Below are positions 46,680-63,280 of a DNA stretch of 64,000 nt, piece by piece. A model generated the notes under the pieces. The model saw only the letters and a program-made list of their open reading frames with translations, was not told the origin of the DNA and did not search any database. The DNA is taken from NCBI GenBank assembly GCA_003583745.1, contig QXPY01000001.1, positions 248,001 through 312,000 of the forward strand, written 5' to 3'. Source of the stretch: Rhodocyclales bacterium GT-UBC. Lineage in GTDB: Bacteria > Pseudomonadota > Gammaproteobacteria > Burkholderiales > Rhodocyclaceae. The position numbers and the translations under genes were made by a program. Within the stretch, counting starts at the first letter, position 1, and each line of letters opens with the position of its first letter.

Positions 46680-46695
46680 TGCAGATAGCGTGCCA
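46680..46695 (-). promoter_or_regulatory. Sigma-54-like promoter of the decaheme/porin operon
   Basis: On the minus strand TGGCAC GCTAT CTGCA: perfect -24 element including the following G, correct GG-N10-GC spacing, one mismatch in the -12 element. Predicted start near 46669, 38 bases before the cytochrome TTG. The gap 46632-46869 otherwise holds only a doubtful 66-codon frame (46649-46849, minus). Confidence 0.55.
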
Positions 46696-46869
46696 GGATG
46701 GCCGGTTGCCGTCTTGCTTTCCCGTAACTGGTAAAGGGTGGCGTGGGCCTCGGCTTATCTTGCGCACCGGCTTTCTGGCCAAGCGCCCGGGCGAATGCGA
46801 TCGCCCCTTCCGGCCGCTCTTCAATCAGAGGCCGTCCGGTCCGGGGCATTTGTGTTCACTGGCGGCGTA

Positions 46870-47844
46870 TCAGGCGGCGCTCAACCCAAGGCGTTCAAAC
46901 AGCTGATCGTCCCGGCAGCTATCCGCGTTGGGCGTGGTCAGCAGGTTGTCGCCGTAGAACAAAGAGTTGGCGCCGGCCATGAAGCAAAGTGCCTGCAATT
47001 CTTCGCTCATCTCCTGACGCCCGGCCGAGAGGCGGACGACGGAACGGGGGAGCAGGATGCGGGCGACAGCGATGGTGCGGACGAATTCGAACGGGTCGAG
47101 TTTTGCCTGGTCGGCCAATGGGCTGCCGGGAATGGCTACCAGGTGGTTGATGGGTACCGATTCCGGCGGTTTCGGCATATTGGCGAATTGCACCAGCAGG
47201 CCGGCGCGATGGCGACGGGTTTCACCCATGCCGACGATGCCGCCGGAACAGATCTTGATGCCGGCCTGGCGCACTTGGTCTAGCGTATTCAAGCGGTCGG
47301 CATGCGTATGGGTGGAGACGATGTTCGGGTAATAGCTCGCCTCGGTATCCAGGTTGTGATTGTAGAAATCGAGTCCAGCATCCTTCAGGCGTTCGGCTTG
47401 CCCTGGTTTGAGCATGCCGAGCGTCAAGCAGGTTTCCAGGCCAAGTGTCTTGACCCCTTTGACCATGGCGACCACGGCATCCAGATCCTGGTCTTTCGGG
47501 TTGCGCCAGGCGGCGCCCATGCAAAAGCGGGTGGCACCGCGAACACGGGCTTCCAGCGCTGCGGCGAGGACTTCGTTCAAGGGTTTGAGCGGCTCTCTTT
47601 CAACCGGGGTCGCGTAATGGGCGGACTGCGAGCAATATTTGCAGTCCTCGGAGCAGCCACCCGTCTTGATTGAAAAGAGGGCGGAGCGTTGGATGGCTCC
47701 GGGTTCGAAGTGCTCGCGAAGCACGCCTTGGGCTTGCCAGATCAGGTCCATCAGGGGGAGTTCGAAGAGCGCCTGGGCGCGCTCGATGGTCCACTGCGTG
47801 GCTTTGGAAGTGTCAAATGTCTGGGCCCGGCGTGTTTGCGGCAT
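46870..47844 (-). CDS. bioB: Biotin synthase
   Basis: Radical-SAM enzyme inserting sulfur into dethiobiotin (324 aa). SAM cluster motif [16 protein letters not shown], the [11 protein letters not shown] and [13 protein letters not shown] motifs, and [12 protein letters not shown] with the [2Fe-2S] ligand Arg. The ATG at 47844 gives the standard N-terminus; the longer frame to 48033 overlaps the upstream gene. No other bio genes are adjacent. Confidence 0.96.
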
Positions 47845-47917
47845 GGCGATCCTATGGAAAAGTGGCTGATTGGTGGGAGAACAGGGGTAAATGGCGCGGT
47901 CGCTTACTGCGCGGGGC

Positions 47918-49306
47918 TTAATCCGAGTCGGGCGTTTTGGCGCGATGCGGGCAGATTTCGCAAAGACGCCCGGGCTTGTCGCCGTGCAGTACGCGCTGGC
48001 GGGTGGTTCGGAAAACCTGCCCGTTCCAGGCATCGGTGAAGGTGATTTGTTTCAGGTCGGCAGCAAACGAATAGCCCGAGTGATCCTGGGCGCAGGCGAC
48101 GAGATGGCCGTTGGTGCGAATATGCGCTTCGATGAATGGTGACCAGCAATGGCACTTGCCGGCATATTCATCGCGCCGGCTTTCGCTGATATGGTGAAAG
48201 GGCGTTAAGCCAGGCTCGTTGCTGATACGCATGAACGCCTGGGTGAGATGGAAGACGCTCTTGTGGTTGATCTGGACCACCGATATCGCGCAGTGATGAC
48301 CGGTTTTTCGCGTCAATTCGTCTCGGCTGTCGAGCAGGCGACGAATTTGCGCCGCAAAGCAATCGGGTTCGACCGTGGCTCGGCTTTCGGCTTCGGCCCG
48401 CCATTTGCCACTGGCCAGGTTGTAGTCGAGGACCAGCTGATCCAGGCCCGAGGCCATCGCCATGACCAACAATTCCTCGTTGGCGGAGAGCGGGTCGGCA
48501 TGCAGAACGACCTTGGGAAAATGGCAACGCGATTTGGCGAAGCTGATGGCGGAGGGAAGCCAGGCGCAGCGCCGGATTGGTCCGAGATCGGAAAGAACCA
48601 GTTGGCCGATTTTGAGGTTTCCGAGTTCCCTGACGATACAGCGGAAGAAACCTTGGTCCATCACGTCGCCGGCGTCGCGCAGGGCGCCACCCTTGCTGTC
48701 GCGCAGGGTGCGCGAGGCGGTCAGGTCAAGACAGACCGAGGACGGGGTGGGGGGCGTTTCGTTCAAGACAGCCGATAGACGCGGGGCAGGGATCAGTGGC
48801 GCGGGGTGTGGCGGCCGCTTGTCGCCGTGGGCGTTGATGTGCCCCCGGATCAGGGAGGCGAGTTTTGGACGGGGGCTGAAGCCCCATACATCGCTGACCG
48901 AAATGCCTTCGCCCAGGGCAGCATGGTCGCCTTTCTCGATGAGCCGGCATGCTTCCCCGATACTGATGCCGAGGAGAGGGGCGGCATCCTGAGCGCGCAG
49001 GATGACGTTCATCTTGGCCAGGAACATCAGTTCCCGGGCGACGTCGATCGGAAAGCCCTGGCGGCTGCCGTCGCGCGAATCGAGCAGTACCTTGTGAATC
49101 AGCGTATTGAGCTCGCGCGTTCGCCATAGTTGAACGATCTGGCGGGCCAGGTGGGGCATGGATTCGAGGGCGGCACTGGTGTCGCCTGCGATGGTTGCGC
49201 CGGCGCGTGCCGCTGAAGCTGCGGCTGGCGCGGATTCGTGTTCCATCTCGAAGTTGATCGTCGGCAATGGGGTGTTGTCGACCAGGAGAACGGCTGCACT
49301 GTTCAC
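47918..49306 (-). CDS. SPASM-domain protein with degenerate radical-SAM core
   Basis: 462 aa. N-terminal helical domain (about 45-140, [20 protein letters not shown]). The middle follows a radical-SAM-type barrel, but where CX3CX2C should be there is only [17 protein letters not shown] with a single Cys. The C-terminus keeps a SPASM-like cluster-binding region: [22 protein letters not shown], and [10 protein letters not shown]. It may bind an auxiliary Fe-S cluster without SAM chemistry. The GTG at 49306 has AGAGGG upstream and is preferred to a TTG at 49420. Lies between bioB and the HiPIP gene. Confidence 0.7.
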
Positions 49307-49376
49307 GGATAAGCCCTCTGCAAAAGATGGTTCGTCGTCGATGGGGTGAGGCTTGCAACGACCTGGTTCCTGTCTA

Positions 49377-49392
49377 AGCAGCAAGGATGCCA
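49377..49392 (-). promoter_or_regulatory. Weak sigma-54-like site before the SPASM gene
   Basis: On the minus strand TGGCAT CCTTG CTGCT with correct GG-N10-GC spacing, 60 bases before the predicted site-to-GTG distance. A 16-base palindrome-like element TTCCCGA-tc-TCGGGAA lies further upstream at 49446-49461. Confidence 0.3.
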
Positions 49393-49525
49393 AGGCGCCG
49401 AACCCTGTGTGCTGGGGCAACAGGCTGGCTGACGGGGAGAAAGGCTTCCCGATCTCGGGAAAAAGCAGGGGGGGATTCCCTTGTTTGCGAATCGCAGACT
49501 GGCTGCGCTGGCTCGATGGTCAAGA

Positions 49526-49549: not shown

Positions 49550-49565
49550 GCGGAGTCGCTGAAAT

Positions 49566-49823
49566 TCAGCCCTTCTTGGCGTAGGCAACGCAGTAACCCT
49601 TGGCCGACACTTCGGTGTCGCCCGGGAAAATCTTGCAGCCGCCGAGGTCGCCCGAGCCCGGAACGAACTGGACGCAGGTGGCGCATGCCTTGTCGCCTTC
49701 CGGGCTGTCCTTGTATTTCATGGTGGTGCGCATGTTTTCGTTCTTGGCTGCCAGGGCGACGACCGGGATCATGGCCAGGGAAAGACCACCGATTTTCAAC
49801 AGATTGCGACGAGACGGATTCAT
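49566..49823 (-). CDS. High-potential iron-sulfur protein (HiPIP)
   Basis: 85 aa. Twin-arginine signal SRRNLLKIGGLSLAMIPVVA, then a short mature protein with the four [4Fe-4S] Cys: two in KACATCVQF, one in LGGCKIFPG and one in AKGYCVAYAKKG. HiPIPs are periplasmic one-electron carriers between cytochrome bc1 and reductases or reaction centres. Own promoter and terminator, so monocistronic. A natural partner for the cytochromes around it. Confidence 0.93.
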   Translation of the reverse strand: MNPSRRNLLKIGGLSLAMIPVVALAAKNENMRTTMKYKDSPEGDKACATCVQFVPGSGDLGGCKIFPGDTEVSAKGYCVAYAKKG

Positions 49824-49952: not shown

Positions 49953-49968
49953 TGCAAGCATCGGGCCA
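49953..49968 (-). promoter_or_regulatory. Sigma-54-like promoter of the HiPIP gene
   Basis: On the minus strand TGGCCC GATGC TTGCA: perfect -12 element, one mismatch in the -24 element, correct spacing. Predicted start near 49942, leaving a leader of about 119 bases. Confidence 0.45.
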
Positions 49969-50072: not shown

Positions 50073-52502
50073 ATGAAAAAAGCAAGAATCTGGGTGAGAT
50101 TGGTCATCGCCATCCTGCTGGCAGTGATGGTTTCAGGCGCCGGCCTGGTTCATTGGGCAACCCTGGAACAGAAGAACCTGGCAATCGAGCAGTCGAAGGA
50201 TTTCGCGATGAGCGTTCACCAGATGACGCTCGCCGGACTGACCGGAATGATGATTACCGGCACCATCGGGTTGCGGACCATTTTTCTCGACCAGATCAAG
50301 GAGTCGAATCACATCGAGTCCTTGAAGGTGTTTCGCGGTGATGCGGTCGTCAAGCAGTTTGGTCTGGGCTTCGATGGCGAAACGCCTTCCGATGCCCTGG
50401 AAACCCGTGTTCTGGTGACCGGTGAGGCGTATTTCGACGTGGTCAGCAGCAAGCGCGGCGGCGAGCATTTGAAGGCCATCATTCCGGTCAAGGCGACCGA
50501 AAATTATTTGGGCAAGAATTGTCTTTTCTGCCATGAAGTGCCGGTCAACACGGTACTGGGTGCCGTCAGCATGGAAGTGTCGCTTGATCGTGCCGCCGAA
50601 ACGACCCGCAGCTTCGGTTTGCGCGCCTTGTTGGCCGGTGCCGCGCTTTGCCTGCCGCTCGGCCTGTTCATCTGGTTCTTCATTTCGAGAATGGTCACCC
50701 GGCCGATGGCCAAGATGACCGAAGGCTTGAGCAGCATTGCCGACGGCGACATCGCCCAGGCCAATTTGCTGCCGGTTCTGCGTCATGACGAAGTCGGTGC
50801 CGCCATCGAGGCTTTCAATCGCGTAATGGGCAAGACCGGCGAACTGCTGCAACAACAACGCATGTCGCGTATCGTTTTCGATAATTCGCTAGAAGGGATT
50901 ACGGTTACCGATGCTTATTCGCGGATTCAGCTGGTCAATAAGGCTTTTTCCGATACCACGGGTTATTCCGCCGAGGAGGTGATCGGCAAGACGCCGGCCA
51001 TTCTCAAATCCGGCAGGCAAAGCCCGGAGTTCTACAGCGAATTCTGGGCCGCCCTGCAGCGCGATGGCGAATGGCGTGGAGAAATCTGGAATCAGCGCAA
51101 GAACGGGTCGGTTTACGCCGAGTGGCTCAATGTCAGCGCCGTCCGTAACGCACGCGGCGAGGTCGAGCATTACGTGGCTATCTTTTCGGATATCACCGAA
51201 CGCAAGGAGCGGGAGGAGTTGATCACCTTCCAGGCCTTCCACGACGCACTGACCGGGTTGCCCAACCGCTTGCTGTTCAAGGACCGCCTCGAGCAGGCGC
51301 TGGCCCAGGCCAAACGCTACAAGAGCCGGACACCGGCGGTGATGTTTCTCGATCTCGACAAATTCAAGCAGGTCAACGATACGCTTGGGCACGACGTCGG
51401 CGACCTGCTGCTCAAGGAAGTGGCCAATCGCCTCAAGGGCTGCGTGCGTTCGGTCGACACCGTGGCTCGCCTGGCCGGTGACGAATTCACCGTCCTGCTG
51501 CCGGAGGTGACCTGCGAGAGCGATGCCGATGCCGTTGCCGAAAAGATTCTGGCGGCCATGCGCGAGCCGATTGCCCTGGGGGCGGAAGATCGGGTGGTTA
51601 CCACCAGTATCGGCCTCAGCATGTATCCCAGGGACGGCCGGGATGCCGATGCCTTGATGAAGTCTGCGGATGCGGCGATGTATCACGTCAAGGCGACCGG
51701 CCGCGCCGGGCGTTGTTTCTTCTCCGATGAACTGCGCGGCGCGCCCTCGCGGCGCAGCGAGCTGGAGGGACGCCTCAAGGACGCCTTCATCAATCGCGAG
51801 TTCGTCCTGCACTATCAGCCGATCATCGATTTGCAAAGCGGCGAAGTGCATGGCAAGGAGGCCTTGATCCGCTGGCAAACGCCGGAAGGCCAGCTGCTCA
51901 TGCCGGACGAGTTCATCGGTCTGGCCGAAGAGGTCGGTTTGATGGCCAAGCTGGGCGAGTGGGTGCTGGAGACAGCCTGTATCCAGGCGCGCTTGTGGCA
52001 GCTTGAAAATCAGGCGGTGCGAATTGCCGTGAACCTTTCGGCCAGCGAGTTCAATCGGCCGGACCTGGCCGACACCGTACGTGCCATTTTGCGGCGGGCC
52101 GGCTTGACGCCGAATCTATTGGAGCTGGAGGTGCCGGAAAGCCTGGTCATGGTCGATGCCGAGCATTCCAAGCGGGTCTTCCGGGAATTGGCCGATCTCG
52201 GCGTGATGCTCAGCATCGGGAATTTCGGTACCGGTTATACCTGTCTGGCAGCGCTGCACCAGATGCCGATCGATACAGTCAAGGTCGATCGCAGCGTCAT
52301 TCGCCAGTATCTCAGTCAGCATCACGACAAGTCCTTGCTGAACGCCGTGTTTGGCGTTGCTTCTGCGCTTGGTTTGCGGGCAGTGGCCGAGGGCGTCGAG
52401 AGTCTGGAGCAGTTGAGTTTGTTGCAGGAGTTCGAATGCAATCGGGCGCAGGGCTATCTGTTCGCCTTGCCGCTTCCCGAAGGAAAAAAAGACACCGCCT
52501 AA
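50073..52502 (+). CDS. Haem-c sensor diguanylate cyclase with degenerate EAL
   Basis: 809 aa. Membrane segment 1 (VRLVIAILLAVMVSGAGLVH), periplasmic domain with NYLGKNCLFCHEVPVNTVLG, a CxxCH haem-c site at residues 150-154, membrane segment 2 (GAALCLPLGLFIWFFISRMV), HAMP, PAS, GGDEF (RLAGDEFTVL, active-type variant) and EAL. EALIRW is present but the catalytic DDFGTGYSS is SIGNFGTGYTC, losing both Asp, so phosphodiesterase activity is unlikely. Expected output: c-di-GMP made in response to periplasmic redox or a haem ligand. The sensor is a paralogue of that in the chemoreceptor at 41423. No good promoter found in the 249-base divergent gap. Confidence 0.92.
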   Translation: MKKARIWVRLVIAILLAVMVSGAGLVHWATLEQKNLAIEQSKDFAMSVHQMTLAGLTGMMITGTIGLRTIFLDQIKESNHIESLKVFRGDAVVKQFGLGFDGETPSDALETRVLVTGEAYFDVVSSKRGGEHLKAIIPVKATENYLGKNCLFCHEVPVNTVLGAVSMEVSLDRAAETTRSFGLRALLAGAALCLPLGLFIWFFISRMVTRPMAKMTEGLSSIADGDIAQANLLPVLRHDEVGAAIEAFNRVMGKTGELLQQQRMSRIVFDNSLEGITVTDAYSRIQLVNKAFSDTTGYSAEEVIGKTPAILKSGRQSPEFYSEFWAALQRDGEWRGEIWNQRKNGSVYAEWLNVSAVRNARGEVEHYVAIFSDITERKEREELITFQAFHDALTGLPNRLLFKDRLEQALAQAKRYKSRTPAVMFLDLDKFKQVNDTLGHDVGDLLLKEVANRLKGCVRSVDTVARLAGDEFTVLLPEVTCESDADAVAEKILAAMREPIALGAEDRVVTTSIGLSMYPRDGRDADALMKSADAAMYHVKATGRAGRCFFSDELRGAPSRRSELEGRLKDAFINREFVLHYQPIIDLQSGEVHGKEALIRWQTPEGQLLMPDEFIGLAEEVGLMAKLGEWVLETACIQARLWQLENQAVRIAVNLSASEFNRPDLADTVRAILRRAGLTPNLLELEVPESLVMVDAEHSKRVFRELADLGVMLSIGNFGTGYTCLAALHQMPIDTVKVDRSVIRQYLSQHHDKSLLNAVFGVASALGLRAVAEGVESLEQLSLLQEFECNRAQGYLFALPLPEGKKDTA

Positions 52503-53493: not shown

Positions 53494-54540
53494 TCAGCTC
53501 CCCAGCATGCGGCGCAGAAAGCCGCCGACCTGACTGATCAGCGAAGTCGGGGATGCGGATTCGGGCGATGTTGCAGCGGCCGGCGCGGTATTGTGTGAAA
53601 GCGGCGCGGCGGTGCTACCCGCAGCGGTAGCGAGATCTTCGTTGGCCGGCAGGGCGACTTGGTAGCGCAAGCCAAGCCGCGGGTTTTCGCGCAATTCGTT
53701 ATGGCGCGCGATGGCCGATTTCAAGGTCAGGCGGAGATAGCCCGCCTTAACCGGCTTCGGGATGAAGCGGTAAATCTGTCCCTGATTGATCATGCGCGTG
53801 ATCAGGTTGCTGTCCATCGTCGAAGTCAGGACGATGCTGACGATTTGCGGGTGCTGACGTTTCAGCAGGCAAAGCAGGTGGGTCAGGTCGGTTGTGCCGA
53901 GATTGCGTTCGGCCAGGATCACGCCAATCTCTTCTTTCTCGAGAATGCCGAAGGCTTCGGCCGGATTGGTCACATGAATGACCTCACCCAGATCGCCGGC
54001 GCTCATTTCGACGGCGGAATGCGTCGCCTCGTCGTCGTCGAGGACGAGAAGGCGGGTCGGTTGCGAGATTGCGTTCGGGCTCGGCTCGTCGGCCGGCGCG
54101 AGGGCTTCGCCTTCGCTCTCCTGGCGGCGGGCGATCTCGGCCGCCTGGGCGACGATGGCCGGCAGTTCTTCGACGTTCCAGGGTTTGTTGATGAAGCGGA
54201 AAATTTCCGATTCGTTGACCGAGCGCAACACGGCTTGCATGTCGGAATAGCCGGTGAGCAGGATGCGCATTGCCCGCGGCGCCAGTTGGCGGACTTCATT
54301 GAGAAAGTCGACGCCGCTCATTTCCGGCATGCGCTGATCGCTGATGACGACATCGAAGTCGCTGTTCCTCACCAGGGCAAGGCCCTCCTGCGCGCTGACC
54401 GCGGTCACGACGTGAAATTCCTTTTTGAGCAACCAGGATAGCGCACGCAAGATATTCGGTTCGTCATCGACGCACAGCACGCGTCCTTTTGGGGCGGCGC
54501 TGCTGGTCGGCATGGTGATGGACAGGGAATTGGCTGACAT
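53494..54540 (-). CDS. Double-receiver response regulator
   Basis: 348 aa. Receiver 1 (LCVDDEPNILRALSWLLKKE; acceptor in DFDVVISDQRMPEMSG; TGYSDMQAVLRSVNESEIFR and KPW) is complete. Receiver 2 (LLVLDDDEATHSAVEM) has Glu at the acceptor position (GVILAERNLG), which cannot be phosphorylated normally. A low-complexity Ala/Ser/Pro tail ends RRMLGS. No DNA-binding or enzymatic domain. The ATG at 54540 is used; the frame upstream is a shadow of the kinase gene. 26 bases after that kinase. Confidence 0.9.
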   Translation of the reverse strand: MSANSLSITMPTSSAAPKGRVLCVDDEPNILRALSWLLKKEFHVVTAVSAQEGLALVRNSDFDVVISDQRMPEMSGVDFLNEVRQLAPRAMRILLTGYSDMQAVLRSVNESEIFRFINKPWNVEELPAIVAQAAEIARRQESEGEALAPADEPSPNAISQPTRLLVLDDDEATHSAVEMSAGDLGEVIHVTNPAEAFGILEKEEIGVILAERNLGTTDLTHLLCLLKRQHPQIVSIVLTSTMDSNLITRMINQGQIYRFIPKPVKAGYLRLTLKSAIARHNELRENPRLGLRYQVALPANEDLATAAGSTAAPLSHNTAPAAATSPESASPTSLISQVGGFLRRMLGS

Positions 54541-54566: not shown

Positions 54567-56102
54567 TCAAAGCTGCATCACGGTTTCGGGGGCCGAGACG
54601 GGCAGGGTGACGACGAAGGTCGTGCCAAATCCGGCCTGGGTGGCGACCGAAAGTTCGCCGCCATGATTGCGCACGATGTCGCGGGCGATGGAGAGGCCGA
54701 GACCGGTTCCAATGCCTTTCGGTTTGGTCGTGAAGTAGGTGTCGAAGATATGCGGCAGCACTTCGGGCGGAATGCCGCTTCCGTTGTCGCTGACCTCGAT
54801 GCGGATGGTGCTGCCCTGGAGGGCGGTATTGATGCGGATTTCCCCACTGTCTTCGATGGCCTGGGCGGCGTTGGTGATCAGGTTGAGGAAAACCTGGTTC
54901 AATTGCGACGGATTGCAATCGATGTGCGGCAGCTGACCGAAGCTTTCGCTGATTCGGACGCGGGATGGAATCGCACTGCGCGCGATGTAAATAACCGTTT
55001 TCAAGGTTGCATTGATATCGGTATCGACCACCTTGCTGCGGTCGAGACGGGTGAAGTCGCGCAGGTTGTCGACCAGTTCGCGCATTTGTTCGAGTCCTTG
55101 CAGGACGTCGCCCAGCATCAGGCAGAGGTGCTCGATGTCTTCGGGTTGTGCCGAGTAGTTGCTCAGCAGATGGCGCGACTTTTGTAGATCGAGTTTGATC
55201 GTGTGCTGATCGGCGGGCAGTTTGCGTACCACGCCGGCAAAGCGGCTGGCGATGCGCATCGGCAGCTCAAGGTTCCGGATGGCCGAGATGGCCAGGCTGA
55301 CATTGCTGTGCGAGAAGGCGATCGGCGTGTTGAGCTGGTGCGAGACGCCGGCGACCAGCAAGCCGAGCGACCCCATTTTTTCTGCTTGAGCAAGTTGCTG
55401 CTGGCTTTGCCGATTTTCTTCCGCCTGCCGACGGATGATGCGTTCGGCACGCAAGACGATCAGGAACAAAGAGGTAAAAAGCAGACCCATGGCACCAACG
55501 ATCATTACCAGCAGCCGGATCTCGGTGTCGCGGATTTCGGCGAGCAGGGGCGTGACGTCGGAGTAGATCTCGAACACGCCAGCCGTCCGTTTTCCGTCGT
55601 TGGCGAATTGTGGAATGTAGCTTTGAATCAGGTCGCGGTTTTCGACGACTTGCTCGAACGCGCTGAATTTTTCCTTGTGAACCAGTTCGGTACGGGTTTG
55701 TCCGTCTCTCGCGCCGAGAAAGCCGGGGTTCTGCGATTTGTCTTCGCCGATCTGTGCGAGTTCGGAAGAGTACAGGGTGCGGCCCTGGAGGTCATAGACC
55801 TTGATCTTGTAAGTGCTGCTGCCCCGCATCAAGGCCAGTACGTCGCGATGGATTTCCGGAATACGGGAAAGCGTTTTCAAATTTGAGGATGACGTATGCC
55901 CTGCTTCTTCCAGCAGATCGACAAAGTGGCGTTGCCAAAGCGTATTGGCGAATACTCGGGTCAGATTGACATTGTTGTTTTCCTGCTGTCTGATCATTCT
56001 CGACAAGGCCATTTCCCTGTAATAGAGGCCGAGGAGGCTGCCAATCGCGGCAAACAGCACCAGGCTGGTCAAAGAGAAATGGCGAACCAGACGAAATTTC
56101 AT
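54567..56102 (-). CDS. Membrane sensor histidine kinase
   Basis: 511 aa. Membrane segments near residues 10-28 (LTSLVLFAAIGSLLGLYYRE) and 198-216 (MIVGAMGLLFTSLFLIVLRA) enclose a periplasmic domain of about 170 residues with IKVYDLQGRTLYSSE. Cytosolic coil, His box MGSLGLLVAGVSHQLNTPIA and HATPase (NLITNAAQAI, DNGSGIPPEVLPHIFDTYFT, GTGLGLSIARDIV). Head of an operon with the double receiver and a periplasmic triheme cytochrome, suggesting it monitors the same electron-transfer route. Confidence 0.92.
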   Translation of the reverse strand: MKFRLVRHFSLTSLVLFAAIGSLLGLYYREMALSRMIRQQENNNVNLTRVFANTLWQRHFVDLLEEAGHTSSSNLKTLSRIPEIHRDVLALMRGSSTYKIKVYDLQGRTLYSSELAQIGEDKSQNPGFLGARDGQTRTELVHKEKFSAFEQVVENRDLIQSYIPQFANDGKRTAGVFEIYSDVTPLLAEIRDTEIRLLVMIVGAMGLLFTSLFLIVLRAERIIRRQAEENRQSQQQLAQAEKMGSLGLLVAGVSHQLNTPIAFSHSNVSLAISAIRNLELPMRIASRFAGVVRKLPADQHTIKLDLQKSRHLLSNYSAQPEDIEHLCLMLGDVLQGLEQMRELVDNLRDFTRLDRSKVVDTDINATLKTVIYIARSAIPSRVRISESFGQLPHIDCNPSQLNQVFLNLITNAAQAIEDSGEIRINTALQGSTIRIEVSDNGSGIPPEVLPHIFDTYFTTKPKGIGTGLGLSIARDIVRNHGGELSVATQAGFGTTFVVTLPVSAPETVMQL

Positions 56103-56155: not shown

Positions 56156-56171
56156 CGCATTGTCCGTGCCA
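56156..56171 (-). promoter_or_regulatory. Sigma-54-like promoter of the kinase-cytochrome operon
   Basis: On the minus strand TGGCAC GGACA ATGCG: perfect -24 element with the following G, correct GG-N10-GC spacing, one mismatch in TTGC. Predicted start near 56145, 43 bases before the ATG. AT-rich DNA follows. Confidence 0.5.
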
Positions 56172-56210: not shown

Positions 56211-57104
56211 ATGAAATGGCAGTTTGACCGGGCTTGTCGCCAGGGGATGCTGGCGGGGCTGTTGACAGCCCTGTGTTTGGCCGCGGGGGCGGCAATCTTC
56301 CTGCACGCAGAGCGGGACCAAAAGGAAATCGAAGCGCGGGCGGCGGCTGAAGCCTTTGCTTCCCGTATCACGCAGCGAACCTATGAAACTGTCAGTCCGG
56401 TGTACATGCTGGCTTCGATGGTGAAGTTGAATCGGGGCGAGATCCCTGAGTTCGATCAGGTTGCTTCCGATCTTCTGCAGGAGTTCCCCTTGGCGCGCGC
56501 CCTGGAACTGGCGCCGGCGGGCGTGGTTCGTCAGGTGTATCCGTTACGTGGTAACGAGGCGGTGCTGGGCCACGACTTGCTGAAGGACCGGGGTCGTAAC
56601 CGTGAAGCGCATCTTGCAGTATTCCGCAGGCAGATGATGGTAGCCGGCCCGTTTGAGTTGATCCAGGGCGGCCTTGGCGCGGTGGCGCGTTATCCGGTTT
56701 TTCTGATGGGCGATCAGGGGAAGGCGAGTTTCTGGGGGTTCGCCATCGTGCTGTTCCACGTCAAGGAGCTTTTAACCAGTGCCGGCTCGATGGAAATCGA
56801 GCGCAAGGGTTACGCTTACCAGATTTGTCGGGTCATGCCCGACGCGGATGGCGGGGAGTGCAAGGTTTTTGCCCAGTCTTCTGCGGCTGAGTTGTGCGCA
56901 CCGCTGGGGGTGACCGTCGATTTGCCGAACAATACCTGGCGCCTGTCGGTAGCCCCTCTTGCCGGGTGGATCGATCAGGGGCATTGGCTGGCTGCGATCG
57001 CAATCGTCGTTCTTGGCGGCCTGGCGGCCGGCTATGCGCGATGGCAGGCTTGCCGCCAGGCGGCCGATGATGCAGGCTGCGACGAATCAACGGTGGCGGA
57101 GTGA
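56211..57104 (+). CDS. Stand-alone CHASE-domain membrane protein
   Basis: 297 aa. Membrane segments near residues 12-32 (GMLAGLLTALCLAAGAAIFL) and 258-276 (AIAIVVLGGLAAGYARWQA) enclose a CHASE domain with GPFELIQGGLGAVARYPVF. CHASE domains bind small extracellular ligands and normally sit on kinases or cyclases; here the protein stops about 20 residues after the second membrane segment, with no output domain. Overlaps the 3' end of the opposite cyclase gene by 18 bases. Possibly a co-receptor. Confidence 0.85.
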   Translation: MKWQFDRACRQGMLAGLLTALCLAAGAAIFLHAERDQKEIEARAAAEAFASRITQRTYETVSPVYMLASMVKLNRGEIPEFDQVASDLLQEFPLARALELAPAGVVRQVYPLRGNEAVLGHDLLKDRGRNREAHLAVFRRQMMVAGPFELIQGGLGAVARYPVFLMGDQGKASFWGFAIVLFHVKELLTSAGSMEIERKGYAYQICRVMPDADGGECKVFAQSSAAELCAPLGVTVDLPNNTWRLSVAPLAGWIDQGHWLAAIAIVVLGGLAAGYARWQACRQAADDAGCDESTVAE

Positions 57105-60100
57105 AAAGGGCAGCGGTCGGATATTCGGCATGCCGTCCGTACTGCGTGCCGGCAGCTTGAATTGGTGCTTGCGTTGCAGCAGTTCTTCGAATTGCCGCGC
57201 CGGCAAGGGGCGCGAGAAATAGTAGCCCTGCAGGATGTCGACCGAAACGTCGCGTAACAGCTCGACTTGTTCGATGTTCTCGACGCCTTCCGCGATGATG
57301 TCGAATTGCAGGCTATGCCCCATGGCGACGATGGCCTTGATGATCGCGCTGGCATCGTCGTCGACGGCCGCGTCGATGACGAAACTGCGGTCGATCTTCA
57401 GGGTGTCGAGCGGCAGTTGTTTCAGGTAGCTCAGACTGGAATAGCCGGTACCGAAATCGTCGATGGATAGCTTGATGCCCAGGTCGCGGATCTGGTTCAG
57501 GGTGCGAATGCCTTGTTCGCTGTCCTGCATCACCGCGCTTTCAGTCAGTTCGATTTCCAGGTGTCGTGGATTGAAGCCGGTCTCGCGCAGGATGGCCCGG
57601 ATATCGGATATCAGGTTTTCATCGGAGAGTTGAATGGCCGAAAGATTGACGGCGACGAACAACTCCTCCCCGGTCAGTTGTTGCCAACGCAGGTTTTCTT
57701 CGCAGGCCTTGCGCAATACCCAGGCGCCAATGGGGCGGATCAGTTTGGTTTCTTCCATCAGCGGAATGAAGACGGCCGGACTGATCGGTCCGCCCAGTTC
57801 GTCCGTATGCCAGCGCAACAGCGCTTCGGCGCCGGCGATGCGACCGCTGAGGGCGCATACCAGGGGCTGGAAGAATACGGATAGTTCGCCGCGTTCAAGG
57901 GCATGATGCAGTCGGCTTTCCAGACGCATCCGTTCGGCCGAGCGGGCATTCATGTCTTGCTGGAAAAAGCGGAAGGCATTGCCGCCTTGCTCGACCGCCG
58001 CATACATGGCCGAGTCGGCGCTGCTGATCAGGCTTTCGGCGCTGTCCGCATCATCCGGGTAAAAGCCGATCCCGATGCTGGCTGACAGGTGAATTTCGTG
58101 GTGCTCGTGGATGATGGGTTGGCGCAAGCGGCGTTGGCAGGCATTGGCGAGCATCGTCGCATCGGCCGGACCATCGGCGCTGGTGGCGATAATGGCAAAT
58201 TCATCTCCGCCCAGCCGGCACAGGATGTCACCCGGCCCGAGGCAGGCCTTCAGGCGGTTCCCGGCTTCGACCAACAGCCGGTCGCCGGCGCCGTGGCCCA
58301 TGGTGTCGTTGAATATCTTGAAGCGATCAAGATCGAACATGAGCAGGGCGATTTTCGCATCCTGGTTTTTGGCATGTTCAATGGCGTGCCGGAGTTGCTC
58401 GTGGAAGAGCACGCGATTCGGCAATGAGGTCAGGGAATCGAAATGGGAGAGGAAGGTCAGACGGTTTTCGGCTTCCTTGCGCTTGGTCAGGTCGGAAAAC
58501 ACCGCGACGTAGTTGTTGATGCTGCCGTCGGTTTGGCGGGCGACGCTGATGTTGAGCCATTCCGGATAGATTTCGCCGTTCTTGCGGCGGTTTTCGATTT
58601 CGCCGCGCCATTCCCCATCGCGTTGCAGAACGCTCCACATCTCATGGTAGAACTGTGTGTCCTGCCGGCCGGAGCTGAGTAGATTGGGGTTCTTGCCAAT
58701 GACTTCCTCGGGCTGGTAACCGGTGACGGCGGAAAAGGCCTTGTTGACCAGCAAAATGCGATTTCTCGCATCGGTAATGATGATGCCCTCTGTGCTGTTT
58801 TCAAAAACTCGCGCCGCCAGTTCCAGTTGCTCGGCGGCTTGCCGTCGCTCGGCCTCTGCCTGCATGCTTTCCAGGGCATGCCAGATATTGTGGGCGAGGT
58901 CGTCGATCAACTGCTTCTCGTTGTTGCCGAAGGCTTCGAGGCTGGCATCGAGCATGCGGATGGAGCCGAGGGGCTGGCCTTGGCGCTGCAAGGGCAAGGC
59001 AATGAAAGCGTTCATGCCTTCCTGGGCAAGTCGTTCGCCCAGTGTGCCGGGGAAGACTTCCTTGGCCGGGAGGTAGAGGCAGTCGTCGAGCTTGGGCAGG
59101 GTGCCAAGGTCGGCCAGCTCGCGAATCAGTGCTGGCGGGTGCTGGCAGTCCTTTGATATGACCAGCTCCTCGGTGTCGTCGAGCTGTATCCAGGCGATGG
59201 GGAATTTCCCGCTGCGACAAAGCAAGTCGGCAATCACCGAGAGCAAGCGTCCCGGTTCGCGTAGCCGAACGATGGCCTGGTTGGTGTCGCTGAGCAGGGT
59301 GAGCAGCCGATTGAGTCGTGCTACCTGGACTTCGGCCTGCTTGCGCTCGGTAATGTCGAGCAGGATGCCGACTATCCCGCCAATATCGCCATCGGTCTTG
59401 TGGAAGACCGCTTTGTGAAAAATGACCTCGCGTTCGCTGCCATCGGCATTGCGCACGCTGCTTTCGTAAAGTTGGTTGCCGCCGGCAACGAGCAGATCCA
59501 TGTCGGCCCGGTGATGGGCGTAGGCCAACGGTGGTGAGGAGATATCGAAGACCGTCTTGCCGGAAATATCTTCCCGCTGTACGCCGATATAGTGTTCGAA
59601 TGCGCTGTTGACGCCGATGTAGCGCCCTTTCGTGTCCTTGAAATATAGCGGGCCGGGAATGGCGTCGATCAATTGTTCGAGGAAGTGCAGGTGTTCGCGC
59701 AGGCGAAGATCGAGCATTTCCTGTTCGGTGACGTCCTGGGCGAATTCGAGAATGTATTCCGGCGCACCGTTGTCGCCGAGCAGCACGGTCTTGCGCATCT
59801 TCACCCAGCGGGCGGGTTGCCCGGGCATGGTGATTTGCTGGAGCGGCACATCGACCTGGCCGCGTCCATGGATCACCTCGTCGTCGCTGTGGTTGAAACC
59901 GTCGGCTTGCTCGCTGCCGTAAATTTCATCGTTGCTGCGCCCGATCAGGGATTGCCGCGACCGATTCAGGATGTCTTCGCCGGAGCGGTTGATGCGTGCG
60001 ATCCGCCGATCGTTGGCGCGCTTGAGAACGATCATGCCGGGAATATGTTCGAAAATGCTGTCGAGGAGACGATGCGAGCGTTCCAGCATGCGTTCGGCTT

Positions 60101-61025
60101 CCTGCCGGCCCTCGATCTCCATTTTCAGAACACGCTTCTCGTCGTCGAGAAGTTGCGTGCGCAGTCGCACCTCTTGCTCCAGTTGATTGGGCCGTCTGAG
60201 CAGGTGCAGGTTGATCGCATAAAGCGCCAGGCTCCCCAGAATCAGGTAGAGGAGGGGCGGAATTCCGATACCGAGCCATGCCGGAGATGCGGATGCGATT
60301 TCGACGCGGAATTGGCTGCTTCCCGGCAAGCGCGTTTCACGCCGAGCCAGTACGGCGCCCTGCGCCGGAATGGTATCGAACAATACGGTGCCGGTGGCGT
60401 GGCCATTCGACAAGTATTGAACACGGATGGCCAGTCCTTCGGAAATGAGTTCGGGCAGCTGCGTCGCTTCGGCCAGGGCGGGAAAGTGCAAGGCGATGCC
60501 GATATGGCCCCAGAAATGGGTTCGTCCTTCCGGAGAACGATTGATCAGCGATTGGCTGATCATCAGTTGCTGACCCCGGATGCTGATCAGCGGTTCGCCC
60601 GAGGGAACAGGGTTCGGCCAAATTCCGGAACTGGCGAGTACCGCTTTCAGCTGGTCGATGGGTTGTTCGCTCTTGCTGGTTTGCACCAGGCTGGGTTTGC
60701 CATCCGGGCTGATTTCCAGCAGCGAAGCCGGGCTGACCAGTTTGAGAATGCTCCCGGCGAGGCGGGAGAATTGGCTGGGCGGCGTGTTATGCAGGCTTTC
60801 GGCAATCAGTGTCGTTGCCGTCGCCGCCTGGGTCAAGGCGAGCTCGACCCGCTGGCTGTAGATCTCGGCATGCCGAATGGCGCGCGATTCGAGTTCGTCG
60901 CTACGCTGGCTGTATTGGTAGAAAAGGTAGCCGCCAATCGGTGCGACAAAAAGCAAGCTGAGGCCTGCTGCGCTGAAGTGAGCAGCCTCCCTGGCTTTTG
61001 TTGCGGCGATTTGCCAAATACCCAT
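57087..61025 (-). CDS. CHASE-like / PAS / GAF / GGDEF / EAL protein
   Basis: 1312 aa. Membrane segments near residues 18-36 and 258-278 flank a CHASE-like periplasmic domain (ISQSLINRSPEGRTHFWGHI). Then a coil, PAS (DSIFEHIPGMIVLKRANDRR), PAS, a GAF-like domain (LLSVIADLLCRSGKFPIAWI), PAS, GGDEF (CRLGGDEFAII, intact) and EAL (AEALLRW, VAVNLS, LTESAV, SIDDFGTGYSSLSY, all intact). It can in principle make and break c-di-GMP. The ATG at 61025 has GGGGAG at good spacing; a GTG at 61049 is possible. Confidence 0.92.
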   Translation of the reverse strand: MGIWQIAATKAREAAHFSAAGLSLLFVAPIGGYLFYQYSQRSDELESRAIRHAEIYSQRVELALTQAATATTLIAESLHNTPPSQFSRLAGSILKLVSPASLLEISPDGKPSLVQTSKSEQPIDQLKAVLASSGIWPNPVPSGEPLISIRGQQLMISQSLINRSPEGRTHFWGHIGIALHFPALAEATQLPELISEGLAIRVQYLSNGHATGTVLFDTIPAQGAVLARRETRLPGSSQFRVEIASASPAWLGIGIPPLLYLILGSLALYAINLHLLRRPNQLEQEVRLRTQLLDDEKRVLKMEIEGRQEAERMLERSHRLLDSIFEHIPGMIVLKRANDRRIARINRSGEDILNRSRQSLIGRSNDEIYGSEQADGFNHSDDEVIHGRGQVDVPLQQITMPGQPARWVKMRKTVLLGDNGAPEYILEFAQDVTEQEMLDLRLREHLHFLEQLIDAIPGPLYFKDTKGRYIGVNSAFEHYIGVQREDISGKTVFDISSPPLAYAHHRADMDLLVAGGNQLYESSVRNADGSEREVIFHKAVFHKTDGDIGGIVGILLDITERKQAEVQVARLNRLLTLLSDTNQAIVRLREPGRLLSVIADLLCRSGKFPIAWIQLDDTEELVISKDCQHPPALIRELADLGTLPKLDDCLYLPAKEVFPGTLGERLAQEGMNAFIALPLQRQGQPLGSIRMLDASLEAFGNNEKQLIDDLAHNIWHALESMQAEAERRQAAEQLELAARVFENSTEGIIITDARNRILLVNKAFSAVTGYQPEEVIGKNPNLLSSGRQDTQFYHEMWSVLQRDGEWRGEIENRRKNGEIYPEWLNISVARQTDGSINNYVAVFSDLTKRKEAENRLTFLSHFDSLTSLPNRVLFHEQLRHAIEHAKNQDAKIALLMFDLDRFKIFNDTMGHGAGDRLLVEAGNRLKACLGPGDILCRLGGDEFAIIATSADGPADATMLANACQRRLRQPIIHEHHEIHLSASIGIGFYPDDADSAESLISSADSAMYAAVEQGGNAFRFFQQDMNARSAERMRLESRLHHALERGELSVFFQPLVCALSGRIAGAEALLRWHTDELGGPISPAVFIPLMEETKLIRPIGAWVLRKACEENLRWQQLTGEELFVAVNLSAIQLSDENLISDIRAILRETGFNPRHLEIELTESAVMQDSEQGIRTLNQIRDLGIKLSIDDFGTGYSSLSYLKQLPLDTLKIDRSFVIDAAVDDDASAIIKAIVAMGHSLQFDIIAEGVENIEQVELLRDVSVDILQGYYFSRPLPARQFEELLQRKHQFKLPARSTDGMPNIRPLPFSLRHR

Positions 61026-61079
61026 CCCGAAATCTCCCCTGTTTGCCACATGAGCGGCGCTGCGAACAGGTGGAGGTAT

Positions 61080-61095
61080 TGCAAGATGGGTGCCA
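61080..61095 (-). promoter_or_regulatory. Sigma-54 promoter of the large GGDEF/EAL gene
   Basis: On the minus strand TGGCAC CCATC TTGCA, a perfect match to the core consensus. Predicted start near 61069, 44 bases before the ATG at 61025. Confidence 0.75.
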
Positions 61096-61145
61096 GTCGT
61101 CGCCTGACGGCTTGGGTACGATCAACCTGGGCGAGAGACGACGGG

Positions 61146-62129
61146 TCAGGGCGCTTTGCCTTCGTCGCGCAGCGGGTAGAAGGCGCGGTTGATGTAGGCG
61201 ACAACGGACTGGATGTCGCGCTCGCTGAAGACGTCCTTCCAGGCCGGCATCGAGGTGTTGGGCAAGCCTTCGCGGATGGCGTGGCGGATCGTCTGCCTGG
61301 TCGCGCTGGACATGAAGTTGATGTCGCGCAGGTTGCGCGGATGCGGCTCCATGAACTTGCCGATCCAGTTCTGGCCGGTGCCGTCGGCCCCGTGGCAGAA
61401 GGCGCAGTTCTGCTGGAACAGTCGTTCGCCGCGCCGTTCCAGCGGGTTCATCCCCTTCACCTTGGGCGGGATGTCGTGCTTGGCATACGGGCTGGCACTG
61501 GCGATGGCATCCGGCTTTGGTGCGTTGGCCAGCGAGAAGTTGTTGCGCGGGAAAGAAAGCGGCCGCGAATCCCAGGTGATGTCGTCGTCGGTCGGTGCGC
61601 CACGATCATGACAGCTGACGCAGCTGGCGAGGTAGAGACGCTTGCCTTCGCTCTGTTGCGGGGTCAGGTTTTCCCATGGTCGGGAAAGCGGTATCTCGCC
61701 TTTGGCAAAGGGGAAGGCGGCCTGGTAACGCTGATGATCCGGCCAGCCGTTCTCGAGCGTGTGGTATTGCGTGTTGGGCGCCTTGCGCTTGACGAATTCG
61801 TCGGCAACAAAGGCGGCGACGGCCTGCATCTCCGTCTCGCTGACAATGCCGGTAAAGGGTTTCATCGCTGTGCCCGGCTTGCCTTGCCTGAGGACCTCGA
61901 CAATCCGCGCCGGGGTCAGGTAGGCCGGGTCGGCGCGGGTGAAGTCGGTCGGACGCGGCGCCAGGTAGCTGGCGGCAAGGGTTTTCCCGTCGCCCGAGTA
62001 GCCGTGGCAGAAATAGCACCGGAAGTTGTAGACCGCCCGGCCTGCCTCGATCTGTTCCGAGGCGCCGGCCGTGGTGGGGAGGAATGCAAGTGCAGCGAGT
62101 GCAACCAGTGATAAGACGGGCAGCTTCAT
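61146..62129 (-). CDS. Periplasmic cytochrome c with three haem domains
   Basis: 327 aa. Signal peptide MKLPVLSLVALAALAFLPTT, then three class I type modules with FRCYFCHGYSGDGK, ASCVSCHDRGAP and QNCAFCHGADGTG. Met-containing loops such as PGTAMKPF and NTSMPAWKD could supply distal ligands in domains 1 and 3. Resembles cytochromes of nitrite/oxidase-linked or EET routes, but no exact family was recognised. 21 bases after a similar gene, so the two were probably duplicated and are co-transcribed. Confidence 0.9.
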   Translation of the reverse strand: MKLPVLSLVALAALAFLPTTAGASEQIEAGRAVYNFRCYFCHGYSGDGKTLAASYLAPRPTDFTRADPAYLTPARIVEVLRQGKPGTAMKPFTGIVSETEMQAVAAFVADEFVKRKAPNTQYHTLENGWPDHQRYQAAFPFAKGEIPLSRPWENLTPQQSEGKRLYLASCVSCHDRGAPTDDDITWDSRPLSFPRNNFSLANAPKPDAIASASPYAKHDIPPKVKGMNPLERRGERLFQQNCAFCHGADGTGQNWIGKFMEPHPRNLRDINFMSSATRQTIRHAIREGLPNTSMPAWKDVFSERDIQSVVAYINRAFYPLRDEGKAP

Positions 62130-62150
62130 GAAAACGCCTTGTGACGATGC

Positions 62151-63182
62151 TTATTTTTTGCCGTATTTCCCGGGTTGGGCAAAGCGGCGGAAGACAAATT
62201 CACTGACGTCGGCGATTTCCTGATCGTTGAGGACCTTGCTCCAGGCGGGCATTTCGGCACCCAGCCGGCCGTCGTGGACCGCAGTGTAAATGGCCGGGCG
62301 GTTGAAGGCGAATCGGAAGCTCTTGTCGAGGAAATTGCGCGGCTTCGGATTGATGAAGTAGGCGCGCGGCCCCTTTCCGTCACCAAGCACGCCGTGGCAG
62401 GTCGAGCAGTTGGCCATGTAGGTCTTTTCACCCTTGGCCGGATTGCCGATCAGGCCGTTCTGGAAGGGCTGGTTCATGCCGTCGGTACTGGTCAGCTGAC
62501 CGCCGCTGCCGTTGGCACTGGTCCCGGAAATCCGGCTGGTGGCCGGCAGCATCAGTGCGGCACGGACGTAATCGACCGCCGCTTCGATATCCTCGGCTGG
62601 CAGGCGACCGGCAAAAGCGGCCATGGCGGTGTTCGGCCGGCCGTTGGTGACCGAGCTCAGCATCCGGTCGCGGGTCAGTTCGCTGCGTGCCTGCGGCGTC
62701 GTGAAATCGCGCGGCGGGATCAGGCCGGTGGCGCTGGGGGCCCCCTGGCCGCGATCGCCATGGCAGACCATGCAGTTCTGGGCGTATACGGTACGGCCGC
62801 GTTGCAGCTTCGGGTCGAGCGACAGCTGCATGAAGGTCGAGCGTATGTAGTCGACCACGGCGGCGATTTCCTTGCTGTCGAGCTGGGTCTTCCAGGCGGT
62901 CATCGCCGTGCCCGGCTTGCCATGGGTGACGATGGTGAGCATGGTGTCGCGGGTCAGTTCGCTGGCGCGGGTGAAGTCGCGCGGTGGCGGAACCAGGCTG
63001 TTCTTGGCCCGGCTGTTGCCGTCGCCGCGGTCGCCGTGGCAGACCGAGCAGTAGTTGTGATAGATCGCGCTCGGGTTGAGCGGGCCTCCTTTGGCCGGGC
63101 GTTCGCCGGCATGGGCGAGCAGGGTACAGCTGGCTGCCGCCAGGGAAAGCAGAATGTGGGTCAGGCGAGTTGGCCGAGTCAT
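62151..63182 (-). CDS. Periplasmic cytochrome c with three haem domains
   Basis: 343 aa. Signal peptide LLSLAAASCTLLAHA, then three modules with NYCSVCHGDRGDGN, QNCMVCHGDRGQG and ANCSTCHGVLGDG, each followed by a PRDF or PRNF motif and a Met loop (GTAMTAW, NTAMAAF, GAEMPAW). The repeated build shows internal triplication of one domain. Divergent from the small cytochrome gene at 63344. Confidence 0.9.
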   Translation of the reverse strand: MTRPTRLTHILLSLAAASCTLLAHAGERPAKGGPLNPSAIYHNYCSVCHGDRGDGNSRAKNSLVPPPRDFTRASELTRDTMLTIVTHGKPGTAMTAWKTQLDSKEIAAVVDYIRSTFMQLSLDPKLQRGRTVYAQNCMVCHGDRGQGAPSATGLIPPRDFTTPQARSELTRDRMLSSVTNGRPNTAMAAFAGRLPAEDIEAAVDYVRAALMLPATSRISGTSANGSGGQLTSTDGMNQPFQNGLIGNPAKGEKTYMANCSTCHGVLGDGKGPRAYFINPKPRNFLDKSFRFAFNRPAIYTAVHDGRLGAEMPAWSKVLNDQEIADVSEFVFRRFAQPGKYGKK

Positions 63183-63233
63183 GGCGGGGCGATCTCCGTC
63201 GCGAAGTGGTCTGAATTGTATGCCGTTCTGGCA

Positions 63234-63249
63234 AGCAAAATACGGGCCG
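63234..63249 (-). promoter_or_regulatory. Weak sigma-54-like site before the triheme pair
   Basis: On the minus strand CGGCCC GTATT TTGCT: perfect -12 element, two mismatches in the -24 element, correct spacing. Predicted start near 63224, 42 bases before the ATG at 63182, the same geometry as the stronger sites. Confidence 0.35.
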
Positions 63250-63264
63250 AATTTTCATTATCTA

Positions 63265-63280
63265 TGGCACGAGGATTGCT
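63265..63280 (+). promoter_or_regulatory. Sigma-54 promoter of the small cytochrome c gene
   Basis: TGGCAC GAGGA TTGCT, a perfect match including the G after TGGCAC. Predicted start near 63291, about 55 bases before the start codon. Confidence 0.8.

What the first reader, a model, noticed from the sequence alone, without database searches (positions are those of the whole stretch)
46680..63280. A sigma-54 regulon of electron-transfer and redox-signalling genes
Seen: correctly spaced -24/-12 sequences lie 38-60 bases before four units. Two are perfect (63265 TGGCACGAGGATTGCT; 61080 TGGCACCCATCTTGCA) and two have a perfect -24 with one -12 mismatch (46680, 56156). Weaker ones precede the HiPIP (49953), the SPASM gene (49377) and the triheme pair (63234). 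Such a concentration in 17 kb of cytochrome and sensor genes is unlikely by chance. Known: sigma-54 promoters need an enhancer-binding protein; none is encoded in the window. Inference: one activator switches on a whole electron-transfer module together with its sensors.
Basis: partly seen in the sequence, partly recalled or inferred. Interest (0 to 1): 0.72.

Follow-up and report, generated by a model that had tools for sequence, protein, structure and literature searches.

The report
Sigma-54 regulon of electron-export genes
A cluster of genes that lets a Dechloromonas-type bacterium pass electrons through its outer membrane carries matching on-switches of one special kind, kept by its relatives, and the likely master switch protein lies just beyond the stretch that was first read.

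Summary
The two perfect sites (63265+, 61095-) and the one-mismatch site (46695-) are as described; 56171- has two mismatches in the 16-mer. In the 56-kb cytochrome island 9 of 27 upstream regions score as sigma-54 promoters, against 2 of 170 in 400 kb elsewhere in the genome and 0.135 expected from shuffles. The SPASM-gene site does not (0 of 5).

A candidate for the missing activator exists: an NtrC-type enhancer-binding protein with its histidine kinase, 27 kb beyond the window in the same island. In 399 genomes of the order it co-occurs with the tetraheme cytochrome UetA (10 of 13 and 10 of 14). A palindrome TTCCCGN4CGGGAA, often two copies 22-24 bp apart about 100-150 bp upstream of -12, precedes the uetA and ccmF-like promoters, recurs in other families, and is held at DNA level inside two coding genes: the probable enhancer. 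HiPIP and 62151/63350 lack it, so 'one activator for all' is unproven. The module resembles the published Uet pathway; my searches listed no paper linking Uet to sigma-54.

The parts
63265..63280 (+). -24/-12 promoter TGGCACGAGGATTGCT of small cytochrome c 63350-63688
   Evidence: present in 7 of 7 genomes (own included) at the same place, also where no ortholog of the gene was called
63234..63249 (-). -24/-12 promoter CGGCCCGTATTTTGCT of triheme cytochrome 62151-63182, back-to-back with 63265+
   Evidence: GG and TTGCT kept in 7 of 7; matrix score only 8.4-12.9, under 9 in 4 of 7
62151..63182 (-). triheme cytochrome c (Cytochrome_CBB3 x3)
61146..62129 (-). second cytochrome c (3 CXXCH); carries candidate enhancer at 61671
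61671..61686 (.). candidate enhancer TTCCCATGGTCGGGAA inside the 61146 gene, about 600 bp upstream of the 61095 promoter
   Evidence: 11 of 12 positions in 7 of 7 genomes; CTT, TCC and GAA codons identical in 7 of 7 against 31 of 152 (20%) identical codons overall
61080..61095 (-). -24/-12 promoter TGGCACCCATCTTGCA of GGDEF-EAL gene
   Evidence: 7 of 7 genomes score 11.2-17.7 at d50-56
57087..61025 (-). multi-PAS/GAF GGDEF-EAL protein
63350..63688 (+). small monoheme cytochrome c
56156..56171 (-). -24/-12 promoter TGGCACGGACAATGCG of histidine kinase gene
   Evidence: TGGCAY..ATGC in 4 of 4 genomes with the gene, own included
55854..55869 (.). candidate enhancer TTCCGGAATACGGGAA inside the 54567 kinase gene, downstream of its promoter
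   Evidence: kept in 4 of 4 while amino acids change; intergenic in the two relatives without a kinase ortholog
54567..56102 (-). membrane histidine kinase
53494..54540 (-). response regulator with two receiver stretches and no output domain found
49953..49968 (-). -24/-12 promoter TGGCCCGATGCTTGCA of HiPIP, 131 bp before the gene
   Evidence: 7 of 7 genomes, d127-135; highest z of 51 genes
49566..49823 (-). HiPIP
   Evidence: PF01355
49377..49392 (-). weak -24/-12 TGGCATCCTTGCTGCT before the SPASM gene; own genome only
   Evidence: 0 of 5 orthologs
49446..49461 (.). candidate enhancer TTCCCGATCTCGGGAA, 76 bp upstream of the SPASM -12
   Evidence: 12/12 in the own genome; only 10/12 matches in 2 of 5 relatives
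46680..46695 (-). -24/-12 promoter TGGCACGCTATCTGCA of cytochrome c 46305, decaheme and MtrB-like genes
   Evidence: 3 of 3 genomes with the gene, own included
43101..46631 (-). small cytochrome c, DmsE-family decaheme cytochrome, MtrB/PioB porin
63838..64000 (+). start of a four-CXXCH gene (to w64527) that runs past the window's end; from here the island continues outside the window. Parts there, coordinate = C9 position minus 248000: two candidate enhancers at 65706 and 65729; promoter 65828-65843 of uetA-like gene 65910; Uet-like operon 65910-78658; candidate enhancers from 83422 and promoter 83543-83558 of ccmF-like gene 83591; histidine kinase 89666-91174; NtrC-type enhancer-binding protein 91208-92584
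   Evidence: gene; sites and enhancers; domains; activator

Best explanation
A 56-kb island for moving electrons through the cell envelope is transcribed largely by sigma-54 RNA polymerase. SHOWN from sequence: conserved -24/-12 elements precede uetA, the ccmF-like operon, the two divergent cytochrome units, HiPIP, the GGDEF-EAL gene, a histidine kinase and (where present) the MtrAB-like operon. A kinase plus NtrC-type activator with a GAFTGA loop is encoded in the island and co-occurs with it. A palindrome TTCCCGN4CGGGAA stands upstream of the uetA and ccmF-like promoters. INFERRED: the kinase senses an unknown, perhaps periplasmic redox, signal and phosphorylates the activator; the activator binds the palindromes, loops DNA and opens sigma-54 promoters, so conduit, heme-maturation and c-di-GMP genes are switched on together. 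Promoters without a palindrome are served by distant copies or by another activator.
For: Sites; enrichment 9/27 vs 2/170; conservation in up to 7 genomes, z 7.1-10.9 for the best nine of 51 genes (one of these nine, 70463, is confounded by coding); sites stand out of otherwise diverged upstream DNA. rpoN present. Activator and kinase in the island; activator orthologs in the same 7 of 36 congeners that hold the island and in 10 of 14 order genomes with UetA. Palindrome: 5 of 12 strict genome copies in the island; a copy 97-143 bp upstream of -12 at uetA in 7 of 7; tandem copies 22 bp apart in two other families, G299 and G344; codon-level constraint at 61671 and 55854. L121, not used to define the motif, has both site and palindrome at uetA.
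Against: No transcription data. A palindrome of 10/12 or more within 1 kb was found at HiPIP in 0 of 7 genomes, 63350 in 0 of 4, 62151 in 1 of 7 and 46305 in 1 of 3. UetA upstream regions of 8 of 13 other-family loci show no site that I accept with the start used, five of them with the activator present (G180, G080, G205, G398, G421), and G364 has a strong site without an activator match at E<=1e-160. The activators of G299 and G421 read GAFTSA and that of G180 did not match my loop pattern. G344's palindromes are 10/12 (p 0.06 for the best). The palindrome was first seen in alignments of this island, so the genome count is partly circular. Nothing but position, symmetry and co-occurrence ties it to this activator.
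Confidence: 0.85

Rival explanations
1. (Compatible with the last sentence of the main explanation.) The sigma-54 promoters are real but belong to two or more activators: the island's NtrC-type protein drives uetA, the ccmF-like operon and perhaps the two signalling genes, while HiPIP, 46305 and the divergent cytochromes answer to others of the 20-odd activators in the genome.
For: Palindrome absent or rare near HiPIP, 62151, 63350 and 46305; 23 PF00158 matches in the genome, about 20 of them strong.
Against: All these promoters travel in one island with one activator in it; enhancers can act over kilobases (general knowledge).
Confidence: 0.4
2. The palindrome is bound by an unrelated dimeric regulator and the island activator uses another site.
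For: No binding data; in the nine stretches outside the island that I looked at, the neighbouring genes have no heme motif except one gene with a single CXXCH.
Against: Place (about 100-150 bp upstream of -12), tandem 22-24 bp phasing, dyad symmetry, and the same element in other families that hold the activator.
Confidence: 0.12
3. The -24/-12 matches are chance.
For: Two perfect sites in 56 kb alone give p 0.03.
Against: Shuffles, background and conservation.
Confidence: 0.01

Closest known systems
Uet (undecaheme electron transfer) pathway of Ca. Tenderia electrophaga and Gallionella (PMC10734462, PMC5371394; passages seen)
   Same: Gene content: tetraheme, peptidyl-prolyl isomerase, beta-barrel, triheme cytochromes, NHL-type proteins, undecaheme cytochrome (against the passages)
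   Different: No sigma-54 control is described in the passages seen; here the island also holds ccm-type genes, HiPIP, c-di-GMP and kinase genes and an NtrC-type activator. No direct sequence comparison with Tenderia was made.
RpoN regulon of Geobacter sulfurreducens (PMC2725144; passages seen)
   Same: Sigma-54 promoters (consensus TTGGCACGGTTTTTGCT) and cytochromes of extracellular electron transfer in one regulon
   Different: There a passage puts extracellular electron transfer among the genes that changed without detectable RpoN elements, possibly indirectly; here elements, activator and candidate enhancer sit in the same island.
NtrC/AtoC/ZraR-type enhancer-binding response regulators
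   Same: Receiver, AAA+ with GAFTGA, Fis-type HTH; nearly whole-length hits to AtoC and NtrC models
   Different: Below the cut-off of each of the 25 NCBIfam families shown of 115 matched (best AtoC 440 against 714 bits).
MtrAB/MtoAB porin-decaheme conduit
   Same: MtrB_PioB 454 bits; DmsE-type decaheme over cut-off
   Different: Found in 3 of the 7 islands only, as a unit beside the Uet-like one

Membership tests
sigma-54 promoter | GG at -24 and GC at -12 with fixed spacing | tested here: met
sigma-54 promoter | more than chance and conserved | tested here: met
   not met for the SPASM site
sigma-54 promoter | rpoN in the genome | tested here: met
   PF04552 225.6 bits
sigma-54 promoter | transcription start 11-13 bases after GC; loss in an rpoN mutant | not testable with these tools
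   no expression data
bacterial enhancer-binding protein (91208) | AAA+ domain with GAFTGA, HTH, receiver | tested here: met
   (own protein and the genus; G299 and G421 read GAFTSA, G180 no match)
bacterial enhancer-binding protein (91208) | upstream activating sequences at its promoters | tested here: inconclusive
   palindrome at uetA and ccmF-like promoters, not at others; binding untested
named NCBIfam activator families (AtoC, NtrC, PEP-CTERM-box regulator, ZraR, NorR) | score over the curated cut-off | tested here: not met
Uet pathway | gene content and heme numbers 4 / 3,3,3 / 11 with PPIase, barrel and NHL-type genes | tested here: met
   the third triheme frame is read at 73486-73850; NHL matches of 73847 (26 bits) and 74845 (an NHL family below its cut-off) are weak; the barrel has no Pfam match and is called barrel by its place and size
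Uet pathway | sequence homology to Tenderia Uet proteins | not tested
   only a 47% match of the 74845 protein in a Gammaproteobacteria MAG
MtrAB/MtoAB | MtrB-type porin next to a decaheme DmsE/MtrA cytochrome | tested here: met

The most novel reading that the evidence does not exclude
A dedicated two-component sigma-54 switch, conserved in several families of the order, controls a Uet-type electron conduit together with its cytochrome maturation genes, periplasmic carriers and c-di-GMP signalling. It acts through TTCCCGN4CGGGAA enhancers, some hidden inside coding genes, and includes back-to-back sigma-54 promoters with -24 boxes 13-15 bp apart that two polymerases probably cannot occupy at once.
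Probability: 0.55. Interest if true: 0.7.

Novelty: new member of a known kind. Interest (0 to 1): 0.58.

Why it matters
How bacteria decide to build outer-membrane electron conduits is little known outside Geobacter and Shewanella (recalled). If right, induction of this switch could serve as a marker of electron exchange in uncultured relatives.

Tried and rejected
Rejected or weakened: (1) The SPASM-gene promoter as a conserved element: 0 of 5 orthologs, though the own genome has a full palindrome 76 bp upstream of its -12. (2) The TGGCAAGAAAAATGCW site before cyt c7 gene 70463: found in 7 of 7 (TGGCGCAAAAAATGCT in G015) but it lies in the coding end of 68097 over a conserved GGKKNA-type peptide (seen), so its conservation proves nothing; it is one of the nine best z values. 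(3) The palindrome at 64200 in gene 63838: not kept in G005 and G015. (4) The site 90846 upstream of the activator gene: inside the kinase gene, kept in the five relatives shown, not tested for codon constraint. (5) Palindromes elsewhere in the genome as further targets: I looked at nine stretches (all seven strict copies outside the island among them); neighbours have no CXXCH except one gene with a single motif next to C4:191210. The places C1:14293, C2:72320, C2:412735, C3:282676, C10:22984 and C10:198217 were not looked at. (6) 40602-: scores 15.6 but precedes a doubtful ORF without orthologs; five relatives have a weaker site 291-293 bp before the next gene, the own one is at 255; inconclusive, yet it is one of the nine. 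(7) L126 (Gammaproteobacteria MAG): my gene caller, trained on this genome, found three genes there, too few to test promoters. (8) For G005 the first 83591 'ortholog' was another copy; the right one is on L128. (9) For G421 the UetA start differs between (site TGGCACGGAGTGTGCA, d155; no site).

Limits: the sigma-54 matrix was typed from recall of published frequencies (the consensus was checked in PMC2725144); genes and starts come from a simple codon-score caller of my own that ignores genes cut by stretch ends, so some 'intergenic' labels in short stretches are uncertain; the 400-kb background is 20 stretches that I picked by hand; the nulls are single-base shuffles, that keeps dinucleotides.
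Full report
CHECK OF THE OBSERVATION. The four main sites lie 50-71 bases before my gene starts, not 38-60. With an approximate matrix typed from recall (consensus checked in PMC2725144, passages), 9 of 27 upstream regions (gap of 40 bases or more) in the island w39,500-96,000 score 12.5 or more. This compares with 2 of 170 in twenty 20-kb stretches elsewhere in the genome, 1 of 41 in the rest of the window and its flanks, and a mean of 0.135 in dinucleotide shuffles of the island regions; Fisher 2e-7 against the background, and between 2e-7 and 3e-4 over the seven thresholds tried. One of the nine (40602) precedes a doubtful ORF. Genome-wide the perfect pattern occurs 23 times against 5 for its reversed control; by my gene calls in short stretches 19 of the 21 outside the window are intergenic, several before genes that look to me like nitrate assimilation and hydrogenase. 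So the pattern seems meaningful in this genome.

WHERE IT IS. The window is C9:248001-312000 of a 4.68-Mb draft. Coordinates above 64000 here are C9 minus 248000. The island runs to about w96,000. It was aligned with six same-genus genomes, G005, G012, G017, G025, G026 and G015. A further record, L121, is an uncultured Dechloromonas. The MtrAB-like unit w40,616-46,631 is shared with only two of the six.

CONSERVATION. Best sites upstream of the genes, counts of genomes with the gene, own included: 46305 3 of 3; HiPIP 49566 7 of 7 at d127-135; kinase 54567 4 of 4; GGDEF-EAL 57087 7 of 7 at d50-56; triheme 62151 7 of 7 by eye (scores only 8.4-12.9, under 9 in four); 63350 4 of 4, and the same site in 7 of 7 regions; uetA-like 65910 7 of 7; ccmF-like 83591 6 of 7, and the seventh genome (G005) has TGGAACTGATCTTGCT at d33 on another contig. 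Among 51 genes tested against single-base shuffles the nine highest z (7.1-10.9) are these eight plus 70463. I discount 70463 because its site lies in a coding end over a conserved peptide. Alignments show most sites as islands in otherwise diverged DNA. The SPASM site is not conserved (0 of 5).

THE ACTIVATOR. Of 23 PF00158 matches in the genome one is C9:339631, gene w91,208-92,584, next to a histidine kinase w89,666-91,174; both are syntenic in the relatives, and in G005 they lie on a second contig. The protein has receiver, sigma-54-interaction and Fis-type domains, a GAFTGA loop, and a C-terminal helix IGLSSLYRKLEE that is the same in the genus and nearly so in the order. In the order the loop is GAFTSA in G299 and G421 and did not match my pattern in G180. 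The protein is below the cut-off of each of the 25 NCBIfam families shown of 115 matched. At E<=1e-150 it occurs in 7 of 36 genus genomes, the same seven that hold the 62151 ortholog at 71% identity or more. In 399 order genomes 13 have it (E<=1e-160), 14 have UetA at E<=1e-60 and 10 have both (Fisher 1e-14). Two more genomes, G046 and G417, have only weak UetA matches (about 1e-23) and were left out of the 14; with them the counts are 13, 16 and 11. Two of the three with activator alone (G068, G113) carry it beside genes that look like other iron-sulfur and membrane redox genes.

THE CANDIDATE ENHANCER. Upstream alignments showed TTCCCGN4CGGGAA. The strict form TTCCCN6GGGAA occurs 12 times in the genome, 5 of them in the island (p 2e-7); the motif was found here, so this is partly circular. 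The loose form TTCCN8GGAA is no more common than its control genome-wide (84 against 82). At uetA each of 7 genomes has at least one copy with 10 or more of 12 positions 97-143 bp upstream of -12; a second copy 23-24 bp from it is seen in all (in the own genome it is 9/12; G012 has a third at 153). At the ccmF-like gene 5 of 7 (96-140 bp), plus G005's other copy (TTCCCGATTTAAGGAA); G015 has none. At 57087 a copy 548-598 bp upstream, inside the 61146 gene, is kept in 7 of 7; its CTT, TCC and GAA codons are identical in all seven, while only 31 of 152 invariant residues (20%) use one codon. At 55854, inside kinase gene 54567 and downstream of its promoter, the motif is kept in 4 of 4 while amino acids change, and it is intergenic in G025 and G026, which have no kinase ortholog. 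A third coding copy, 64200, is not kept. Within 1 kb upstream, copies of 10/12 were found at HiPIP in 0 of 7, 63350 in 0 of 4, 62151 in 1 of 7, 46305 in 1 of 3 and 54567 in 2 of 4 genomes.

OTHER FAMILIES. At 13 UetA loci outside the genus a site that I accept precedes the gene in 5: G364, G330, G344, G167 (weak, 10.2, p 0.02) and G299. G364 has no activator match at E<=1e-160. In G421 a site appears only with the earlier start. G183, G251, G180, G398, G080 and G205 show none; G289's match (11.4) falls past the start. So four further genomes with the activator (G180, G398, G080, G205) lack a visible site here. G299 and G344 have tandem palindromes 22 bp apart (108 and 86; 126 and 104 bp upstream of -12); G299's are 12/12 and 11/12, G344's 10/12 each (p 0.06). 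The ccmF-like gene has a strong site at d33 in G344 and G398, the Dechloromonas distance. L121, not used to define the motif, has both elements at uetA.

WHAT THE MODULE IS. CXXCH counts of w65,910-78,658 in order are 4; 0 (peptidyl-prolyl isomerase); 0 (barrel-like by size and place, no Pfam match); 3; 4; 0; 3; 3 (small frame at 73,486-73,850, counted by eye); 0 and 0 (NHL-type, weak); 11. This fits the Uet pathway as described in PMC10734462 (passages); PMC5371394 (passages) names the undecaheme and triheme cytochromes. I did not compare sequences with Tenderia. PCC3 (PMC5566968, passages) differs in heme numbers. In the rows listed by searches (49 and 50 showed 20 of 36 and 15 of 344) I saw no paper joining Uet or Dechloromonas conduits with sigma-54, and the word sigma has no occurrence in the main texts of PMC5566968, PMC10734462, PMC12442390, PMC5371394 and PMC13386937 (passages seen). 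Geobacter RpoN work (PMC2725144, passages) links RpoN and cytochromes, partly indirectly.

MECHANISM. Shown: promoters, activator, kinase, conserved palindromes, co-occurrence. Inferred: phosphorelay, binding, looping, joint induction. The divergent promoters 63234-/63265+ have -24 boxes 13-15 bp apart in 6 of 7 genomes and 31 in G015. Two holoenzymes would probably collide there (inference from recalled footprint sizes), so the two cytochrome units may share or compete for one polymerase.

VERDICT. A real, conserved sigma-54 regulon and a strong candidate for the missing activator. It is a known kind of regulation applied to a conduit for which I found no such report; whether one activator serves every promoter remains open.

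Noticed in passing
window 63234-63280: Back-to-back divergent sigma-54 promoters with -24 boxes 13-15 bp apart in 6 of 7 genomes (31 in G015); probably mutually exclusive polymerase binding.
   Followed up: partly
window 41423-43084 and 50073-52502: A chemotaxis receptor and a GGDEF-EAL protein each carry one CXXCH in the N-terminal sensor part: likely c-type heme sensors.
   Followed up: no
G025 and G026 islands (L103-L108): Kinase 54567 has no ortholog there, yet the palindrome remains (intergenic), and in G025 a TGGCACAATGAATGCG site lies 243 bp before the 53494 ortholog.
   Followed up: partly
L153, L154 (G068, G113): A 56-57% relative of the activator lies beside genes that look like other iron-sulfur and membrane redox genes; in G113 a four-CXXCH gene there has TGGCACGACTTTTGCG at d125. 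The activator family may serve other respiratory complexes.
   Followed up: no
window 46870-47844: A gene with biotin-synthase-like sequence (from recall) sits between the MtrAB-like unit and the SPASM gene without a site; in three relatives its ortholog lies beyond the w39,500 end of the island.
   Followed up: no
G000:C14:130670-131135 (L112): Two copies of the palindrome 20 bp apart outside the island, by genes without heme motifs; a sigma-54-like site (CGGCACATCAATTGCT, 14.5) lies about 430 bp away, before gene 130727.
   Followed up: partly
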